Below, piece after piece: positions 24,688-31,624 of a stretch of DNA of 32,091 nt. The notes beneath the pieces are model-generated. The model did not search any database, was not told the origin of the DNA, and worked only from the letters and a program-made list of their open reading frames with translations. Source of the stretch: Prevotella sp. (GTDB taxonomy: Bacteria > Bacteroidota > Bacteroidia > Bacteroidales > Bacteroidaceae). The stretch is from positions 1-32,091 of the forward strand of contig JAFVGS010000055.1 of assembly GCA_017474845.1 (NCBI GenBank), written 5' to 3'. The position numbers and the translations under genes are program-made. Positions within the stretch are counted from its first letter, which is position 1; every line of letters begins with the position of its first letter.

Positions 24688-25596
24688 TCACACTTTTTTG
24701 AGCACCCACTCCGGATAGGCGCCTATTCCCGACTTGCATGCGTCATAACCAAGATAGCCAAGGATGATGTTTGACACGTACTGATCAGGCAGAAGCGCGA
24801 ACTCGAGCCTGGCCAGCCACGGACGGGTCATAGCCCTGTTGGCATGACGCTCCAGTTTCTTGAGGTCGGGCAGAAGATTCTCCGCATAGTCGGTAAACCG
24901 CACAGTCTCAAATCCACAGTTAGTAAAATGGTCATTCCACTCTCCAAGTGATTCTATCATGGCAGCAGCTCCACCCTTTGAAAGCAGGGCTATCACCTGT
25001 TGGATATGAGGGTCATAAGTTTCAAGACGCTCTTTCGATGCATAGTCGTAGACAATCATCACTGCACCTGGTTTCATCACACGCCAGACCTCACGGAATA
25101 CTTTTTCCTTATCGCTACAATAGACGAGTGTTTCGATGGCATAGACCACATCGACCGACTGGTCTGGGATCTGTGGAAGACTGCTATAGTCCTGCTCGTA
25201 AATGGTGACATTCTCCGGGTAGTCAACCTTCTTACGAGGTTGCAGATCGACCCCCACAAACTGAGACTTTGGATGGCAATGGGCGAGATAGATGAGATTG
25301 GCTCCCTGCCCGCAACCGAGTTCCATCACGGTGTCACCGTCCTTAATGAACTCTGAGATAGAGTCGGGCTGATGGTAGATGTCCTCATCGCTGAAACAAC
25401 CGTTCTTTGATATCCGGAAGTGCATGAAACCATCCTGTGAATGGTAATGCCTATAGGCCCAGTGATTGATCCTGAAATAAGAGCGTATCTGGTCTATGGA
25501 ATTTTTTTCCCCCTCAATGAATTTCTTCAGATTGATGTACTTCGACATCTCATCAATCTTAGCATGAAGCCGATAATTGCTATATCTCTTGTTCAT
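24688..25596 (-). CDS. Class I SAM-dependent methyltransferase
   Basis: 302 aa. Motif I VMELGCGQGANLIYLA (90-105), acidic loop VGVDLQPR, motif IV-like SVDVVYAIETLVYCSDKEKVFREVWRVMKPGAVMIVYDY. The domain layout resembles UbiE/ERG6-type small-molecule or lipid methyltransferases, with a C-terminal helical region (PWLARLEFALLPDQYVSNIILGYLG). The substrate is unknown. It lies downstream of mutB in the same direction, but a terminator intervenes and no clear promoter is visible, so it may depend on read-through. Confidence 0.85.
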   Translation of the reverse strand: MNKRYSNYRLHAKIDEMSKYINLKKFIEGEKNSIDQIRSYFRINHWAYRHYHSQDGFMHFRISKNGCFSDEDIYHQPDSISEFIKDGDTVMELGCGQGANLIYLAHCHPKSQFVGVDLQPRKKVDYPENVTIYEQDYSSLPQIPDQSVDVVYAIETLVYCSDKEKVFREVWRVMKPGAVMIVYDYASKERLETYDPHIQQVIALLSKGGAAAMIESLGEWNDHFTNCGFETVRFTDYAENLLPDLKKLERHANRAMTRPWLARLEFALLPDQYVSNIILGYLGYDACKSGIGAYPEWVLKKV

Positions 25597-25611
25597 ATTT
25601 GATTTATGGCT

Positions 25612-25644
25612 AAAAAAAGGTTACCCGCATTGCTGCAGGTAACC
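25612..25644 (-). terminator. Intrinsic terminator of the mutA-GxxExxY-mutB operon
   Basis: On the minus strand GGTTACC (25644-25638) pairs with GGTAACC (25625-25619), with an additional inner GC pair region, followed by seven Ts. It lies 8 nt after the mutB stop. Confidence 0.85.
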
Positions 25645-25652
25645 ATTTCACA

Positions 25653-27818
25653 TTACTCCTTGTCCAGCAGGATCTTCATCATCTGGATGGCCGAATACGG
25701 AATCGGGGTTCCAGGTCCGAAGATACAGGCGACACCAGCCTTGTAGAGGAAGTCGTAGTCCTGTGCGGGAATCACACCACCGGCAGTCACCATAATATCC
25801 TCACGCCCAAGCTTTTTCAGTTCTTCAATCAACTGAGGGATGAGTGTCTTGTGACCGGCAGCCAGTGACGAGGCACCGACGATGTGCACGTCGTTCTCCA
25901 CAGCCATACGGGCAGCCTCCTCCGGTGTCTGGAACAGCGGTCCCATATCCACGTCGAAGCCACAGTCGGCATAACCTGTTGCCACCACTTTCGCACCACG
26001 GTCGTGACCGTCCTGACCCATCTTGGCAACGAAGATACGCGGACGACGACCCTCCTTCTGAGCAAACTCGTCGGTAAGGCGCTTGGCCTCCTCGAAGTCC
26101 TTGTCGTTCTTTGATTCTGAACTATACACGCCTGAAATTGTTCTGATTACTGCTTTATAACGGCCTACGATTTCTTCGCAGGCATCTGAAATCTCACCAA
26201 GGGTACAACGCAGCTGAGCAGCCTTCACAGCGAGGTCGAGCAGGTTGTTCTCGCTCTTACGGCCTTCCTTGAAGTCACGCACGCACTCTGTGATAGCCTT
26301 CAAAGCCTCCTGACAAGCAGCCTCGTCGCGTGATCCACGCACCTGAGCCAGACTCTCCTCCTGCTGCTTGCGCACAGCGGTGTTGTCCACCTCAAGGATG
26401 TCGATGGGATCCTCGTGCTCCAGACGGTACTTGTTGATACCGACAATCGTCTGTGAACCGGAGTCGATACGTGCCTGCGTACGGGCGGCTGCCTCTTCGA
26501 TACGCATCTTGGGCAGACCGGTCTCGATAGCCTTGGCCATACCACCTAACTTTTCAATCTCCTGGATGTGCTCCCAAGCCTTATGCACCAGCTCGTTAGT
26601 CAGGGTCTCCACGTAGTAAGAACCTGCCCACGGGTCGATCTGCTTGCAGACCTTCGTCTCGTTCTGGATATAGATCTGGGTGTTACGGGCGATACGGGCC
26701 GAGAAGTCCGTCGGCAGGGCGATGGCCTCGTCGAGGGCGTTGGTATGCAGCGACTGAGTGTGACCCAGCACGGCAGCCATAGCCTCAATACAGGTACGGC
26801 CTACGTTGTTGAAGGGATCCTGTTCGGTCAGCGACCAACCAGAGGTCTGAGAGTGAGTACGAAGTGCGAGAGACTTCGGATTCTTGGCACCAAAGCTCTT
26901 CACAATCTTCGCCCACAACAGACGACCTGCACGCATCTTGGCAATCTCCATGAAGTGGTTCATACCGATGGCCCAGAAGAAGCTCAGACGAGGAGCAAAG
27001 GCATCCACATCGATACCGGCATTCACACCCGTACGCAGGTAGTCCATACCATCAGCCAAGGTGTAAGCCAGCTCGATGTCAGCGGTCGCACCAGCCTCCT
27101 GCATGTGATAGCCTGAGATAGAAATCGAGTTGAACTTCGGCATCTTCTGTGAGGTATACTCGAAGATATCAGCGATGATCTTCATCGAGAAGGCAGGGGG
27201 ATAGATATAGGTGTTACGCACCATGAACTCCTTCAGGATATCATTCTGGATGGTTCCAGCCATCTCCTCCAACTGAGCGCCCTGCTCCAGACCAGCCACG
27301 ATGTAGAACGCTAAGATAGGCAGCACGGCACCGTTCATGGTCATCGAGACAGACATCTTGTTCAAGGGGATACCAGAGAAGAGCACCTTCATGTTCTCCT
27401 CATTACAGATACTCACACCAGCCTTACCCACATCACCCACAACTCGGGCGTTGTCAGGGTCGTAACCACGGTGGGTAGGCAGGTCGAAGGCCACAGACAG
27501 ACCCTTCTGACCCGAAGCCAGATTACGACGATAAAATGCATTCGACTCCTCAGCGGTAGAGAATCCGGCATACTGACGGATGGTCCACGGGCGGAACGGA
27601 TACATCATCGAATACGGACCTCTCAGATACGGCGGAATACCAGCCGTAAAGTCCAGGTGTTCCATCCCTTCCAGGTCTTCTTTCGTATACACCGGCCTTA
27701 CCTCGATATGCTCCGGGGTCTTCCAGTTAGGCTCAATATGATTCTCTTTCAGCCAGGCTGTTCCATCACTCTGATGAATCCCAGCATAAATATCGATATT
27801 TCTAAAATCTTTTCTCAT
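25653..27818 (-). CDS. mutB: Methylmalonyl-CoA mutase, large (catalytic) subunit
   Basis: 721 aa. With B12 it interconverts succinyl-CoA and (R)-methylmalonyl-CoA in propionate production. The N-terminal part has [43 protein letters not shown] and [13 protein letters not shown]. The barrel includes [24 protein letters not shown]. The C-terminal cobalamin domain has DGHDRG with the Co-ligand His605, then [14 protein letters not shown] and GPGT. The ATG at 27818 is chosen over the longer frame from 27875, because that extension runs backwards through an ACACAAAG repeat and [13 protein letters not shown] is a natural N-terminus. Normally mutA and mutB are adjacent; here a GxxExxY gene lies between them. 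Confidence 0.97.
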
Positions 27819-27834
27819 CTTTCTGAATTTTTTA

Positions 27835-27863
27835 ATGAAACACAAAGACACAAAGACACAAAG
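27835..27863 (+). repeat. Left inverted repeat of the GxxExxY unit
   Basis: ATGAA followed by three tandem ACACAAAG units on the plus strand, facing the right repeat at 28342-28370. Confidence 0.8.
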
Positions 27864-27873
27864 TCTTTCCCAC

Positions 27874-27890
27874 AAAGATTACCAATCTTT
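27874..27890. repeat. 7-bp hairpin over the GxxExxY stop codon
   Basis: AAAGATT (27874-27880) and AATCTTT (27884-27890) pair around a 3-nt loop that overlaps the stop codon. It could slow ribosomes or protect the 3' end; no T-run follows. Confidence 0.4.
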
Positions 27891-28370
27891 GATGTAAATG
27901 ATATTTGCGTTTTCAAGTCTTCCATTTATTTTTCTTTTAATACCTTCTTTAAGAACTGAAACATTAAAGTTGATCAATAAACCCATGTGAATATCTGCTA
28001 ACTTCATGTATGTCAGCAACTGAACTTCGTGCAAGGACTTCATCATCTCAACAGCTTTTAATTCCACAATAAAGATATCTTCTACAAGCATATCAATACG
28101 GAAATCTTTACCTGTATCTATACCTTTATAAGTTAATGGAAGATCGACCTGGGTTTTTACCTTCAGACCCATCGATTCCAATTCAACCCGAAGACACTCC
28201 TCATAAACAGACTCCAAAAGACCAGGGCCCAATTCCCGATGCACCTCTATCGCAGCACCAATAATAGTGTTGCTCAATTGTTGCAAACGGTCATATTCCT
28301 CTTGAGGAATAACGCTTTGTGTCTTAACACTCAGCGCAGCCCTTTGTGTCTTCGTGTCTTTGTGTTCCAT
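27879..28370 (-). CDS. GxxExxY protein (PD-(D/E)XK nuclease-like fold)
   Basis: 163 aa. The family motif is G50-LLE-SV-Y56 in ELGPGLLESVYEE. The nuclease-like core is DFRIDMLVEDIFIVELKAVE (Asp93, Glu103, Lys105), followed by HEVQLLTYMKLADIHMGLLINF, matching the GxxExxY family (PF13366 type), whose function is unknown. The ATG lies inside the right inverted repeat, so MEHKDTKTQR is encoded by the repeat. It is in line with mutA (5-nt gap) and mutB and would be co-transcribed. Nothing connects it to mutase chemistry. Confidence 0.85.
   Translation of the reverse strand: MEHKDTKTQRAALSVKTQSVIPQEEYDRLQQLSNTIIGAAIEVHRELGPGLLESVYEECLRVELESMGLKVKTQVDLPLTYKGIDTGKDFRIDMLVEDIFIVELKAVEMMKSLHEVQLLTYMKLADIHMGLLINFNVSVLKEGIKRKINGRLENANIIYIKDW
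28341..28370 (-). repeat. Right inverted repeat of the GxxExxY unit
   Basis: Read on the minus strand: ATGGA, then ACACAAAG, ACACGAAG, ACACAAAG and a further G. It carries the start codon of the GxxExxY gene. Confidence 0.8.
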
Positions 28371-28375
28371 ACAAA

Positions 28376-30238
28376 TTATATACCTAACTTCTGATTATAC
28401 TCCTTAAGGGTTTCTAACACATTGCACTTCACATGAACATAGTTCTCGATGCCGGCAGCCTTCAGGTCCTCCATACAGGCCGGGGCACCAGCTACGACGA
28501 ACATCGCACGACCATTCAAGTACTTGAAGGCGGGAATCGCATACTCAGCATACTCATCGTCAGAAGAGCAGATCACCACGATATCAGCCTTAGCCTCCAA
28601 AGCAGCATCCACACCCTCCTCAACGGTCTTGAAGCCGAGGTTGTCAATCACCTTATAGCCAGCGCAGGCCAGGAAGTTGCAAGAGAACTGTGCACGGGCC
28701 TGACGCATCGCCAGATTACCGATGGTGAGCATGAAGGCGGTTGGCACTTTCGTTTCCTCGGTATGAATCCTCAGATCCTCGAAATCAGCCGCCAATCTCG
28801 TACTCTCAATCTTCTTAAATGCAGCCTCTTCACAGCATCCATCCTTTGAGTCTTTGTGTCTTTGTGTTCCATTAAGAGCCTTCTTGCCCTCACTCTTCTC
28901 GGTGAAGTTCGGAAACTGGTTGGTGCCCAACAGGAACTCCTTGCGCTTCGCAGCATCGCCATGACGCTTCACATTCGTGGCATTGATATCATCCTGGATC
29001 GTTCCAGCCTTCACAGCAGCGAGGAAGCCTCCCTCCTCTTCTACCTTCAGGAAGATCTTCCAAGCCTCCTGAGCCAAAGCATCGGTCAGGTGCTCAATAT
29101 AATAGGAACCGGCACCTGGGTCGACGATACGGTCGAAATGGCTCTCTTCCTTGATAATCAACTGCTGGTTACGGGCGATACGCTCTGAGAAATCTGTCGA
29201 CGCCTCATAGGGGGCATCAAACGGGGTCACCACCATCGAGTGCACACTACCTAAGGCAGCACTCATGGCCTCAGTCTGCGAACGTAACAGGTTCACATAC
29301 GAGTCAAACAGGGTCTGATTATAGGTCGACGTCGTGGCGTTGATGATCATCTTACAGGCACAGTCGCACTTGGGCTCGTACTGCTTCACAATCTGGGCCC
29401 ACAACAGTCTGGCGGCACGGAACTTCGCGATCTCCATGAAATAGTTCTCGCTCACACCCATGTCAAACTTGATGTTCTTCGCTGCAAGGTCTACATCGAC
29501 ACCGGCATCCGTCAACTGCTGCAGATACTCGTTACCCCAAGCCAGGGCATAACCCAACTCCTGCACGATATAGGCACCGGCATTGTTGAGCGCATCAGAG
29601 CTGACAGCGATACAACGGAACTGCGGATACTCCTTCAACACCTCGATGAGCTTCGGAGCCGTCTCAAGCAGTGAGGTAGCGTCCTTGCCCTTCATCACCA
29701 TAGCCTTCAACGGGTCAAAGGCGATAGAGCCGACCACTTTCTCCTTGTCATAACCCTTCTTGGCGAAGAAGGCGACGAGGATCTCAGCCAGTTCGAGTGC
29801 ATGCTTCGGACAGGTGGCGAAATTCACCTCGATACAATCGCAGTAGATACCCTCAAGCAGTGTCTCGATGGTCTCTGCCGACACCAGCTTACCAGAAATC
29901 ATAAAGCCCAGTGAGTCGACACCCTTGTTCAGGATGTCCAACGCCTTGGCATTGGCCTCCTTGGCATCATTCACTTCGATGTTCTGACGAACATACCACA
30001 CATTCGAGTCCTTCTTGTTGCCACGCACGAACGGGAACTCTCCGGGGAGAGCGTCGGGTGTCTTCAGGTTCGCCAGGTCTTCGCGGCGATAGAAGGGCTG
30101 CACATTAAAACCTTCGTTTGTTCTCCATACCAAGCGCTTCTGGAAGTCCGCACCTTTCAGGTCGACCTCGATCTTGTCCAGCCATTCCTGAGTGGTCGGA
30201 GCCGTGAACTCGGTAAAGAGTTTCTCTTTGTTTGCCAT
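28376..30238 (-). CDS. mutA: Methylmalonyl-CoA mutase, small subunit
   Basis: 620 aa. The small subunit has the same fold as MutB but lacks the Co-ligand motif; it stabilises the heterodimer. Seen: EFTAPTTQEWLDKIEVDLKGADFQKRLVWRTNEGFNVQPFYRREDL at the N-terminus, the barrel segments with GAYIVQELGYALAWGNEYL, and a C-terminal B12-domain-like part (FLACAGYKVIDNLGFKTVEEGVDAAL) without DxHxxG. Residues 456-467 (NGTQRHKDSKDG) lie in the linker between domains and are encoded by a 30-nt copy of the ACACAAAG repeat. The start follows a TATCTTTG box at 30309-30316. Confidence 0.95.
   Translation of the reverse strand: MANKEKLFTEFTAPTTQEWLDKIEVDLKGADFQKRLVWRTNEGFNVQPFYRREDLANLKTPDALPGEFPFVRGNKKDSNVWYVRQNIEVNDAKEANAKALDILNKGVDSLGFMISGKLVSAETIETLLEGIYCDCIEVNFATCPKHALELAEILVAFFAKKGYDKEKVVGSIAFDPLKAMVMKGKDATSLLETAPKLIEVLKEYPQFRCIAVSSDALNNAGAYIVQELGYALAWGNEYLQQLTDAGVDVDLAAKNIKFDMGVSENYFMEIAKFRAARLLWAQIVKQYEPKCDCACKMIINATTSTYNQTLFDSYVNLLRSQTEAMSAALGSVHSMVVTPFDAPYEASTDFSERIARNQQLIIKEESHFDRIVDPGAGSYYIEHLTDALAQEAWKIFLKVEEEGGFLAAVKAGTIQDDINATNVKRHGDAAKRKEFLLGTNQFPNFTEKSEGKKALNGTQRHKDSKDGCCEEAAFKKIESTRLAADFEDLRIHTEETKVPTAFMLTIGNLAMRQARAQFSCNFLACAGYKVIDNLGFKTVEEGVDAALEAKADIVVICSSDDEYAEYAIPAFKYLNGRAMFVVAGAPACMEDLKAAGIENYVHVKCNVLETLKEYNQKLGI
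28843..28872 (-). repeat. Solo copy of the GxxExxY terminal repeat inside mutA
   Basis: 30 nt, 28 of 30 identical to 28341-28370 and in the same orientation. It is in frame with mutA and encodes most of residues 456-467 of the linker. Confidence 0.8.
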
Positions 30239-30308
30239 AAAATAAAGTTATACGTTAATTGAATAATTATATAAGTTGTCTTTTCTCAACCTTTTTGCAT
30301 ATTTTCTG

Positions 30309-30316
30309 CAAAGATA
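30309..30316 (-). promoter_or_regulatory. -7 box of the mutA operon
   Basis: TATCTTTG on the minus strand, ~71 nt upstream of the mutA ATG; no clear -33 box. Confidence 0.55.
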
Positions 30317-30551
30317 CAAAATTATAAGCATACGAATAATACAACTGCGTATAATTTATTCTTTTTTAAGAGAAATCTTACCAGCCAAGTCTCCACAATT
30401 CCACAAATAATTTGTGGATCAGATTATGTTAATTATTCAAATTCGTTCCACCAACTGCCATATAGGTTTCTATAATATGCTGGCGCGATAAATCAAAGCC
30501 TGCCCACTATGATGTTTTTATTTTCCATATTCGATGTGCTTATTTTTGGTG

Positions 30552-30581
30552 CAAAGATAGCATTTTTTATTGGAACTCAAA
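30552..30581 (-). promoter_or_regulatory. Second minus-strand promoter upstream of mutA
   Basis: TTTG (30581-30578), an 18-nt spacer, then TATCTTTG (30559-30552). Both boxes and spacing fit the consensus better than the box at 30309. The only downstream gene on this strand is mutA, which would get a ~300-nt leader. Apart from this promoter and the hairpin at 30600, I see nothing in 30320-30907. Confidence 0.55.
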
Positions 30582-30599
30582 ACAAATAGTGCGTTATTT

Positions 30600-30638
30600 T
30601 ACTGCGGTAACCCACTTTTTTTTTGCGTTACCGCAGTA
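30600..30638. repeat. 12-bp perfect inverted repeat
   Basis: Bases 30600-30611 and 30627-30638 (TACTGCGGTAAC and its complement) pair perfectly around a 15-nt loop rich in T. It lies alone in the intergenic region just upstream of the minus-strand promoter at 30552-30581. Confidence 0.7.
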
Positions 30639-30882
30639 TTATAGACTTCTGCGCTGTAAATACCATACTAGAAAAAAGCATCTATCAGAAATCATAGTTC
30701 CCCATTCTTCCTCCTATTCAAATAAAGGTATAGAGTTGGACGCTTTACACCTGTACTGCATTGCGTACAATCTGTACAATATCGTCAAGATGGGTACAGT
30801 TCTCGTAAAAGGTAATTATTTGAGTTAATAAGGTACGTTGGTAAGCACTTTTATGAAGAAAAAAGCAAAAAAATAACGAAAT

Positions 30883-30900
30883 GTTTCGTAATCTCGAAAC
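30883..30900. promoter_or_regulatory. Possible operator of the toxin-antitoxin operon
   Basis: GTTTCG TAATCT CGAAAC: 6-bp perfect arms around 6 nt, 8 nt upstream of the TAACTTTG box. The position suits autoregulation by the HTH antitoxin. Confidence 0.5.
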
Positions 30901-30907
30901 AAATTAT

Positions 30908-30915
30908 TAACTTTG
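30908..30915 (+). promoter_or_regulatory. -7 box of the toxin-antitoxin operon
   Basis: TAACTTTG, 18 nt before the ATG at 30933. Confidence 0.6.
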
Positions 30916-30932
30916 CACCCACAAAAGACAAT

Positions 30933-31277
30933 ATGATGGCAAGAAACAACCCGAAAGTCGCATATCTGGAAGAAGCTCTTTCGTTTATTGAGAGCATACC
31001 AAAGTCCGCAGGTGACAAACTGCTGGAAATAGTACACCGTGTGGAGTGTGGCGAAAGGAATCCCGTTATATTCTCTAAGCTGGAGGGTACGGAAATCTGG
31101 GAGTTCAGAACGCTCTACAATAAAGTCAAGTACAGATTGTTTGCATTCTGGGATACGCAGACCGATACATTAGTTATTGCCACGCATGGTATTATTAAGA
31201 AGACTCAGAAAACGCCGAAGAAAGAAATTTCCAAGGCTGAGAGAATAAGACAAGAATATTTTAACGCTAAAAAATAA
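30933..31277 (+). CDS. HigB/Gp49-type toxin (RelE superfamily)
   Basis: 114 aa. The pattern YLEEALSFIESIPKSAGDKLLEIVHRVECGERNPVIFSKLEG-EIWEFRTLYNKVKYRLFAFWDT and the basic end IIKKTQKTPKKEISKAERIRQEYF match phage-derived Gp49-like/HigB toxins, which are ribosome-dependent mRNA interferases. It precedes an HTH gene by 5 nt, the usual toxin-first order of HigBA. Two ATGs (30933, 30936) are adjacent; either may be used. Confidence 0.9.
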   Translation: MMARNNPKVAYLEEALSFIESIPKSAGDKLLEIVHRVECGERNPVIFSKLEGTEIWEFRTLYNKVKYRLFAFWDTQTDTLVIATHGIIKKTQKTPKKEISKAERIRQEYFNAKK

Positions 31278-31282
31278 GAGGT

Positions 31283-31624
31283 ATGGAACAGGTAGGAAAA
31301 TTCAAATTGTACAGCTCAGAAGAAGTGCTTGACAAGCATTTCGGAAAAGTTGGCACACCACGCCGTGACGAGTTTGAGAGGAGCGTTGCCGAATCGGTAC
31401 ATGCCTATGAGTTAGGAGAGGCTATCAAGAAAGCACGTCTGCAGCAGAACCTCACACAGGAACAGCTGGGCCAGCGGATAGGTGTACAAAGAGCACAGAT
31501 CTCTCGATTGGAGAAAGGTTATAGCATCAGCATTCCAACTATGAGCCGTGTTTTTCAGGCTCTCGGAGTGACTAGCGCTACACTTGATCTCGGTGATGCA
31601 ATAGGCAAAGTTGCCCTTTGGTAA
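31283..31624 (+). CDS. XRE-family HTH antitoxin (HigA-type)
   Basis: 113 aa. The N-terminal ~45 residues (FKLYSSEEVLDKHFGKVGTPRRDEFE) probably hold the toxin-contacting part. The Cro/C1 helix-turn-helix lies at ~50-100 (GEAIKKARLQQNLTQEQLGQRIGVQRAQISRLEKGYSI). It should neutralise the upstream toxin and repress the shared promoter, whose palindrome lies at 30883-30900. Confidence 0.9.
   Translation: MEQVGKFKLYSSEEVLDKHFGKVGTPRRDEFERSVAESVHAYELGEAIKKARLQQNLTQEQLGQRIGVQRAQISRLEKGYSISIPTMSRVFQALGVTSATLDLGDAIGKVALW

What the first reader, a model, noticed from the sequence alone, without database searches (positions are those of the whole stretch)
27835..28370. A GxxExxY nuclease-fold gene framed by inverted repeats and placed exactly between mutA and mutB
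Seen: the gene lies in the gap of a two-gene operon, same orientation, bounded by 29-nt inverted repeats (27 of 29 identical) made of 8-bp ACACAAAG units, with its start codon inside one repeat. Known: GxxExxY proteins are widespread, have a PD-(D/E)XK-like core and no assigned function. Inference: the gene plus its ends is a minimal mobile unit that inserts in intergenic gaps, keeps the operon transcribed and borrows its promoter. I know of no description of such an element.
Basis: partly seen in the sequence, partly recalled or inferred. Interest (0 to 1): 0.8.

Follow-up and report, generated by a model that had tools for sequence, protein, structure and literature searches.

The report
Hairpin-ended nuclease-like gene in operons
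A small nuclease-like gene found in very many bacteria is bracketed by its own matching pair of inverted repeats, sits between genes that related species keep side by side, and has gene-free copies of its ends elsewhere in the genome, so it looks like an undescribed kind of tiny selfish element.

Summary
In detail: a GxxExxY gene (PD-(D/E)XK family) lies between mutA and mutB inside inverted repeats of three 8-nt units. It is a general pattern. In 26 of 32 congeneric loci and 53 of 72 loci from many phyla the gene is bracketed by inverted arrays (shifted positions 3 of 119 and 4 of 444; an unrelated toxin family 0 of 29). Arm sequence differs from gene to gene and follows the protein. Nine species carry the gene at this locus and their two arms differ together; in 19 of 19 congeners first examined mutA and mutB are adjacent. 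Gene-free hairpins with the same arms occur elsewhere, six of them in one complete congener genome. Gene-bearing copies of the genus lie in sense between co-directional genes. In four large sets arm mismatches show no G-U bias, suggesting matching as DNA, though this one locus does lean to G-U. Two other small-ORF families, DUF559 and the rRNA-intervening-sequence protein S23, share the layout with family-specific arms. Best reading: a REPIN-like selfish element whose small protein acts on its own arms. Copying and protein activity are inferred. My searches found no description in print.

The parts
27879..28370 (-). GxxExxY gene, 163 aa, PD-(D/E)XK family; GxxExxY motif at residues 50-56; conserved D93, E103-x-K105, Q117 (own count from alignment A1, whose first residue is Q31)
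28342..28375 (-). upstream arm (GAACACAAAGACACGAAGACACAAAG core), contains the gene's start codon
27830..27863 (-). downstream arm, inverted copy of the upstream arm
28843..28872 (-). solo copy of the arm inside the mutA reading frame, in a variable linker (peptide NGTQRHKDSKDG)
28376..30238 (-). mutA, methylmalonyl-CoA mutase small subunit; host operon gene upstream of the insert
25653..27818 (-). mutB, methylmalonyl-CoA mutase large subunit, taken to start at the ATG of MRKDF
27819..28375 (-). whole stretch between the mutA stop and the mutB ATG, 557 nt; measured from the last aligned mutA codon it is 560 nt here and 1-23 nt in congeners

Best explanation
This is one copy of a tiny selfish DNA element made of two inverted arms (each about three units of 8-10 nt) and one small gene, GxxExxY. 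The GxxExxY protein acts on its own arm sequence as DNA: I think it binds or cuts at the arms, and host repair then copies arm-bounded DNA, which spreads the element, spreads gene-free hairpins made of the two arms, and keeps the two arms alike. Copies carrying the gene survive when they land in sense between co-directional genes, where the host operon expresses them. Shown here: bracketing by gene-specific arms across phyla, arms that differ together between species, arm-protein association, gene-free copies, empty sites, sense orientation, low dN/dS, conserved catalytic residues. Inferred: that the protein itself recognises and cuts the arms, that cutting drives the copying, and that the operon promoter is used.
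For: Bracketing: 26/32 congeneric loci against 3/119 shifted positions and 0/29 Gp49 toxin controls; 53/72 loci of many phyla against 4/444 shifted. The two arms differ together among nine species at this locus, 1 of 20,000 permutations as good, p = 5e-5. Arm similarity follows protein identity, Mantel r 0.42 (genus), 0.28 (other genomes), 0.45 (all 79), 0 of 5000 permutations each. Nearest arm belongs to the same protein family in 67 of 73 loci, shuffled mean 0.325. Gene-free hairpins with the gene's arm type: six, plus two solo arms, beside one such gene among the pattern hits in G045; three of ACACAAAG type in the window's own genome. Empty sites: mutA/mutB and two gene-free hairpin sites. 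Sense orientation in the genus: upstream 25+/0-, downstream 27+/0- of 33, rest undecided. D, E-x-K, Q invariant in 20 of 20 aligned proteins. dN/dS 0.05-0.21 in the six pairs printed. No G-U bias of arm mismatches in four sets.
Against: No copying event was caught: no near-identical strains were available, so exact ends and any target duplication are unresolved. At this very locus the mismatches between arms do lean to G-U (11 wobble-type against 2 other transitions over nine species), as an RNA stem would. S23 elements share the architecture although S23 is not known as a nuclease. Flank data hint that recombination, not transposition, brought the element into this species. One genome (G048) has 19 arm-pattern hits and no PF13366 match. 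6 of 32 and 19 of 72 loci score below the threshold. Arm matching at this locus is not strictly one to one: the L208 upstream arm scores 26.5 with the L213 downstream arm and 24 with its own, and that of L209 scores higher with L211, L212 and L214 than with its own. The permutation ignores shared ancestry.
Confidence: 0.56

Rival explanations
1. RNA-level element like the intervening sequences (IVS) of 23S rRNA: the arms pair in the transcript, RNase III cuts the gene out of the operon mRNA, and the stem is what selection keeps.
For: The arms pair with each other in the predicted RNA, z = -6.57, with the AUG inside the stem. Sense orientation between co-directional genes. Arm mismatches at the mutA/mutB locus lean to G-U, 11 against 2. 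The S23 protein of rRNA IVSs is one of the three ORF families with this layout, and a published IVS has an S23 ORF inside a 28-bp terminal-repeat stem with tandem heptamers before the ATG and is excised by RNase III (PMC4990558, passages read).
Against: In the larger sets arm mismatches are not biased towards G-U: 17 against 20, 51 against 47, 23 against 37 and 16 against 22. Pairing alone does not explain why arm sequence follows the protein. No Rfam family matched window 25500-31500.
Confidence: 0.22
2. The hairpins are moved by another enzyme and the small ORFs are passengers that add a selectable function to a hairpin.
For: Three unrelated ORF families occupy the same layout and S23 has no known function. 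Gene-free hairpins exist. G048 has arms without a PF13366 match.
Against: Passengers should be shuffled among arm types, but arms follow the protein family in 67 of 73 loci and the protein within GxxExxY. I did not search for another enzyme linked to the arms.
Confidence: 0.15
3. A resident regulatory structure: the arms are binding sites or a processing stem that control a host gene, inherited vertically, not mobile.
For: Low dN/dS; with one query protein, 0 of 50,697 phage records and 8 of 72,556 plasmids match.
Against: Adjacent mutA and mutB in 19 of 19 congeners first examined; presence of the gene on the mutA tree needs at least three changes; GxxExxY of L214 is 88% identical to that of L211 while their mutA are 72% identical; gene-free copies.
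Confidence: 0.05

Closest known systems
REPIN-RAYT systems (repetitive extragenic palindromes with a REP-associated tyrosine transposase)
   Same: Enzyme-family gene bracketed by the repeats that occur elsewhere as short gene-free inverted pairs; repeat type follows the protein; rarely found in phage and plasmid records (RAYT features recalled; only listings and abstract starts seen)
   Different: The gene is a PD-(D/E)XK family protein, not a Y1/HUH transposase; the arms are tandem 8-10-nt units, not GTAG- or CGTC-tagged palindromes
23S rRNA intervening sequences (IVS) with the S23 ORF
   Same: Small ORF inside a terminal inverted repeat, tandem short units before the ATG, sense to the host transcript (PMC4990558, passages read)
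   Different: Not in rRNA; GxxExxY instead of S23; no RNA-pairing bias of arm mismatches in four sets, though a lean to it at this locus; gene-free hairpins in intergenic gaps
MITEs / minimal IS elements, e.g. BrickBuilt of Porphyromonas gingivalis
   Same: Short terminal inverted repeats, gene-free copies in intergenic gaps (PMC4596501, passages read)
   Different: No transposase domain in the insert; an IS sharing these ends was not looked for; target duplication unresolved
Free-standing homing endonuclease genes (recalled)
   Same: Lone nuclease-family gene in an intergenic gap; presence scattered on the host-gene tree; a hint of flank replacement in mutA
   Different: Bracketed by its own repeats and accompanied by gene-free copies at unrelated sites

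Membership tests
GxxExxY protein family (TIGR04256 / PF13366) | score over the curated cut-off | tested here: met
   147.5 bits against 35; 144.6 against 22
GxxExxY protein family (TIGR04256 / PF13366) | PD-(D/E)XK residues D, E-x-K (and Q) kept | tested here: met
   invariant in 20 of 20 aligned proteins
REPIN-RAYT | Y1/HUH transposase gene | tested here: not met
   only PF13366 matched in the gene
REPIN-RAYT | enzyme gene bracketed by the repeats | tested here: met
   26/32 and 53/72 loci
REPIN-RAYT | gene-free inverted repeat pairs in the same genome | tested here: met
REPIN-RAYT | GTAG/CGTC tag at the palindrome foot (tag named in a title listed) | tested here: not met
   by eye only: no such tag at the arm ends of the nine pairs printed or of the G045 copies printed
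23S rRNA intervening sequence | lies in a 23S rRNA gene | tested here: not met
   lies between mutA and mutB; no Rfam match in window 25500-31500
23S rRNA intervening sequence | ORF inside a terminal inverted repeat | tested here: met
23S rRNA intervening sequence | S23 ORF | tested here: not met
   the ORF is PF13366
23S rRNA intervening sequence | excision by RNase III | not testable with these tools
   needs RNA work
IS element / MITE | transposase gene in the element | tested here: not met
   the sense ORF of the insert matches only PF13366
IS element / MITE | ends shared with a transposase-bearing element of the genome | not tested
   no IS search of the genome was made
IS element / MITE | target-site duplication | tested here: inconclusive
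   no near-identical empty site available
Homing endonuclease gene | nuclease cuts the empty site | not testable with these tools
   needs biochemistry
Homing endonuclease gene | flank co-conversion | tested here: inconclusive
   window mutA is 88-99% identical to the empty sister L215 in the bins up to codon 570, 85% at codons 570-595 and 76% in the last 26; in that last bin the eight carriers range 72-89% (L212 89, L213 88) and the eight loci without the gene 73-84%; no clear signal in mutB

The most novel reading that the evidence does not exclude
GxxExxY, DUF559 and S23 genes are the protein parts of one superclass of transposase-free selfish elements, 'inverted-array small-ORF elements'; the GxxExxY branch alone spans many bacterial phyla and one archaeal MAG. 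Each protein is matched to its own rapidly changing arm DNA and keeps a population of gene-free hairpins in operon gaps and even in coding linkers; the long-known 23S rRNA intervening sequences are merely the members that landed in rRNA. This would give a function to protein families that have none.
Probability: 0.42. Interest if true: 0.92.

Novelty: categorically new. Interest (0 to 1): 0.85.

Why it matters
GxxExxY is a widespread family named only by a motif; of the three papers whose full text holds 'GxxExxY' or 'PF13366' I saw one passage, which mentions it in passing. If the reading is right it is the agent of a selfish element with no transposase, and the co-varying arms make its DNA specificity directly testable. 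It would also explain families of short dispersed repeats and offer an origin for the rRNA intervening sequences, whose functionality and origin are called unclear in PMC4990558 (passages).

Tried and rejected
RNA-stem selection: tested by comparing G-U-preserving with G-U-breaking arm mismatches; no bias in the four large sets, but 11 against 2 at the mutA/mutB locus; demoted, not excluded. On rereading I had understated that last count, so I lowered the best explanation from 0.58 to 0.56 and raised this rival from 0.20 to 0.22.

A defence-system reading: PADLOC gave only weak hits across the family (Cas4 in 8 of 20 members, best E 4.7e-4; Cas4b in 5, best E 3.8e-5); not pursued.

Spread by phage or plasmid: with L045 as query, 0 of 50,697 phage records and 8 of 72,556 plasmids; one viral contig by a scan limited to one peptide pattern. 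Disfavoured as the main route, for relatives within reach of that query.

Solved relatives: none convincing by sequence (best E 0.34).

Exact ends and target duplication: sought in congeners; the relatives found are too far for base-exact ends. Gene-free hairpins also lie mostly between co-directional genes (11 of 14 decided; 4 more undecided), so orientation does not settle DNA against RNA level. In one search a hairpin was located in 18 of 24 regions (the other 6 gave no pair under my pattern); several regions repeat sites already read in L038-L040 and L328-L335.

Rows dropped: 1 of 33 and 8 of 80 for short flanks; 1 of 30 in each (Gp49). The loci are the best-scoring matches that the tool laid out (29 new ones plus the window genome's 4 of about 100 GxxExxY rows; 30 each of the DUF559, S23 and Gp49 rows), not a random sample. 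L093, a weak partial mutase match in a twentieth congener, was not examined. Orientation rests on a longest-ORF rule; undecided in the genus: upstream 8 of 33, downstream 6 of 33; the Gp49 control used 24 of 30 loci. The mutA tree had an unsettled bootstrap and long branches (L216, L211); the mutB tree was not shown because the script stopped with an error. One search prints 6 of 36 pairs (the rest exceed my limit on synonymous difference) and dS is near saturation. L336 was fetched and not analysed. Paper listings were capped: 20 of 28,968, 15 of 64, 11 of 12.

Full report
1. The 163-aa ORF at 27879-28370 (minus) is a GxxExxY protein (TIGR04256, 147.5 bits; PF13366, 144.6 bits). It lies between the small and large subunit genes of methylmalonyl-CoA mutase, all on the minus strand. 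Its inverted repeats (27830-27863 and 28342-28375) are 88% complementary over 34 nt, and the start codon lies in the upstream arm. A further arm copy (28843-28872) lies in frame inside mutA, in a linker that varies strongly among congeners. The linker is not clearly longer than in relatives, so this copy may have replaced linker sequence.

2. The site is empty in relatives. In 19 of 19 other congeners examined first (17 located by tblastn, 2 read from the printed sequence; a twentieth, weak match was not examined) mutA and mutB are 1-23 nt apart, against 560 nt here by the same measure. A wider search (398 congeners, 261 with a match) laid out its 30 best loci; nine, the window included, hold a GxxExxY gene in the gap, and the listing suggests at least one more (G153, partial match). 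Among the other 21, three (L222, L233, L235) hold a gene-free GC-rich palindrome in the same gap. On the mutA tree presence of the gene needs at least three changes and the window's sister (L215, support 100/99) is empty; the tree's bootstrap had not settled. GxxExxY of L214 is 88% identical to that of L211 while their mutA proteins are 72% identical. The window's mutA is 88-99% identical to empty L215 in the bins up to codon 570, 85% at codons 570-595 and 76% over the last 26 codons, where carriers L212 and L213 reach 89 and 88%; but other carriers range down to 72% and other loci without the gene up to 84%. This hints that the window's species received the element together with some flanking DNA; mutB gives no clear signal.

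3. The arms are a property of the gene family. I scored the best ungapped match between the 300 nt upstream and the reverse complement of the 300 nt downstream. In the genus, 28 of 32 loci beat all 31 cross-locus pairings and 26 of 32 score 14 or more, against 3 of 119 shifted positions in the same loci and 0 of 29 loci of a control family, the Gp49-like toxins. Of 80 loci from named genomes of many phyla, 72 were usable; 53 score 14 or more, against 4 of 444 shifted positions and 113 of 1440 cross-locus pairs; 42 of 72 beat all 20 of their sampled cross-locus pairs. The cross-locus control is inflated because arms of this protein clade share a motif (tandem CRCRRAG units, for example CACAGAG or CACGAAG) in loci from a cyanobacterium (L106), planctomycetes (L115, L145) and an archaeal MAG (L117). 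In other clades the units differ (CACGGATTA, CGGACT, AAAGATT).

4. Arms and protein change together. At the mutA/mutB locus nine species have arms of clearly different sequence (ACACAAAG, ACACGAAG, ACACAGAG, ACGC types), and within each species the two arms, about 480 nt apart, agree at 22-25 of 26 hand-picked positions; sum of own-pair scores beaten or equalled by 1 of 20,000 permutations. Shared ancestry among the nine lowers the number of independent changes to a few, and some upstream arms match a sister species' downstream arm better than their own (L208 with L213; L209 with L211, L212, L214). Over 79 GxxExxY loci arm similarity follows protein identity (Mantel r = 0.45; genus alone 0.42, other genomes alone 0.28; 0 of 5000 permutations each).

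5. Gene-free copies exist. The window's own genome (59% complete) holds three inverted pairs of ACACAAAG type without a gene and one of ACACAGAG type. In a complete congener genome (G045) the pattern CACGGATTNCACGGATT occurs 18 times at nine places: one is a GxxExxY gene with both arms, six are gene-free hairpins, two are solo arms, as read from the printed sequence; a later search found one more place. The reversed pattern occurs 0 times in the 60 genomes. Fourteen of the 15 genomes with the pattern have a PF13366 match (one of them, G008, weak), against 27 of the 45 without it; the exception is G048. Two of the window genome's hairpin sites lack the hairpin in the congeners compared (site 1: G018, G025, G013, G031, with an unrelated 0.9-kb stretch in G020; site 2: G022, G025, G033, G034). 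Eighteen hairpins located in 24 fetched regions are 61-137 nt long with no GxxExxY gene in the stretch of up to 3 kb around them.

6. Orientation. By a longest-ORF rule, GxxExxY genes of the genus lie in sense with the upstream gene in 25 of 25 decided cases and with the downstream gene in 27 of 27 (33 loci); in the wider set 55 of 64 and 53 of 62 (80 loci); S23 24 of 24 and 22 of 22, DUF559 23 of 24 and 24 of 25 (29 loci each); the Gp49 control 11 of 18 and 10 of 16 (24 loci). Gene-free hairpins: 11 of 14 decided cases between co-directional genes.

7. DNA or RNA? The whole element folds with its arms paired (z = -6.57), as in the rRNA intervening sequences. If selection kept the RNA stem, mismatches between arms should favour G-U pairs on the sense strand. 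In the large sets they do not: 17 wobble-type against 20 other transitions (genus), 51 against 47 (wider set), 23 against 37 (S23), 16 against 22 (DUF559). In the nine mutA/mutB arm pairs they do: 11 against 2; four of the ten G/A cases are the same position in four related carriers. I favour matching at the DNA level, with this locus as a point for the RNA rival.

8. Two more families. In the same 60 genomes DUF559 genes (another PD-(D/E)XK family, recalled) are bracketed in 22 of 29 usable loci (0 of 114 shifted) by GC-rich arms, one type of which (L267) resembles the gene-free palindrome in the mutA/mutB gap of L222. S23 genes, known from 23S rRNA intervening sequences, are bracketed in 25 of 29 (0 of 110 shifted) by arms mostly of 7-10-nt units. 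The nearest arm of a locus belongs to the same protein family in 67 of 73 cases (22/26 GxxExxY, 21/22 DUF559, 24/25 S23; shuffled mean 0.325, maximum 0.603). A published IVS (PMC4990558, passages read) has the same plan: S23 ORF, 28-bp terminal repeats, tandem heptamers before the ATG.

9. The protein. D, E-x-K and Q are invariant among 20 diverse members. dN/dS is 0.05-0.21 in the six pairs printed, with dS near saturation. No convincing solved relative was found by sequence.

10. Literature. Searches for GxxExxY (2 papers: one passage of one read, the other seen only as a listing), six repeat strings (0 papers), PF13366 (1 paper, listing only), DUF559 with palindromic/repeat (20 of 28,968 listed), and combinations with REPIN/RAYT (11 listed), IVS (20 listed; 11 of 12), small-ORF family names (3 listed) and MITE terms (15 of 64) showed no title or abstract start describing repeats around these genes. 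A term search in a MITE review found no REPIN, RAYT, nuclease or Bacteroid-. The library holds open-licence papers only, so absence in print is not shown.

11. Judgement. The finding is real and general. 'Dispersing element' is well supported; 'GxxExxY is its agent, acting on its own arms as DNA' is the best reading but rests on association. It works like REPIN-RAYT but is not a member (no HUH transposase), and it shares its plan with IVS but neither their location nor their ORF.

Noticed in passing
L238-L267 (DUF559 loci of 60 congener genomes): DUF559 genes are bracketed by GC-rich inverted repeats in 22 of 29 usable loci; many DUF559 frames listed are open over 300-1300 codons, as if repeat and gene read through into neighbours.
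   Followed up: partly
L298-L327 (S23/PF05635 loci): S23 four-helix-bundle genes are bracketed by inverted arrays of short units in 25 of 29 usable loci, several ending in GACAATA or GACAA.
   Followed up: partly
L222, L233, L235 (mutA/mutB gap of other species): Gene-free GC-rich palindromes sit in the same operon gap, as if it were a hotspot; that of L222 resembles the DUF559 arms of L267.
   Followed up: partly
L213 and L214, mutA linker: GC-rich repeats lie in frame in the same variable mutA linker that holds the ACACAAAG copy in the window.
   Followed up: no
L035 (G000:C18, about 95000-95650): A GxxExxY gene flanked on each side by a small hairpin of its own (AACATCTAAAGACACGAAA type) instead of one arm per side.
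   Followed up: no
G048:C9:2127-2411 and C5:51958-51992: Tandem runs of CACGGATTA-type arms in a genome with no PF13366 match (85% complete).
   Followed up: no
L328 and L335 (G045): Hairpins carry extra partial end repeats outside the main arms, as if copies had landed in or beside older ends.
   Followed up: no
window 30933-31624: Gp49-like (PF05973) gene followed by an HTH (PF01381) gene, the layout of a toxin-antitoxin pair (function recalled).
   Followed up: no
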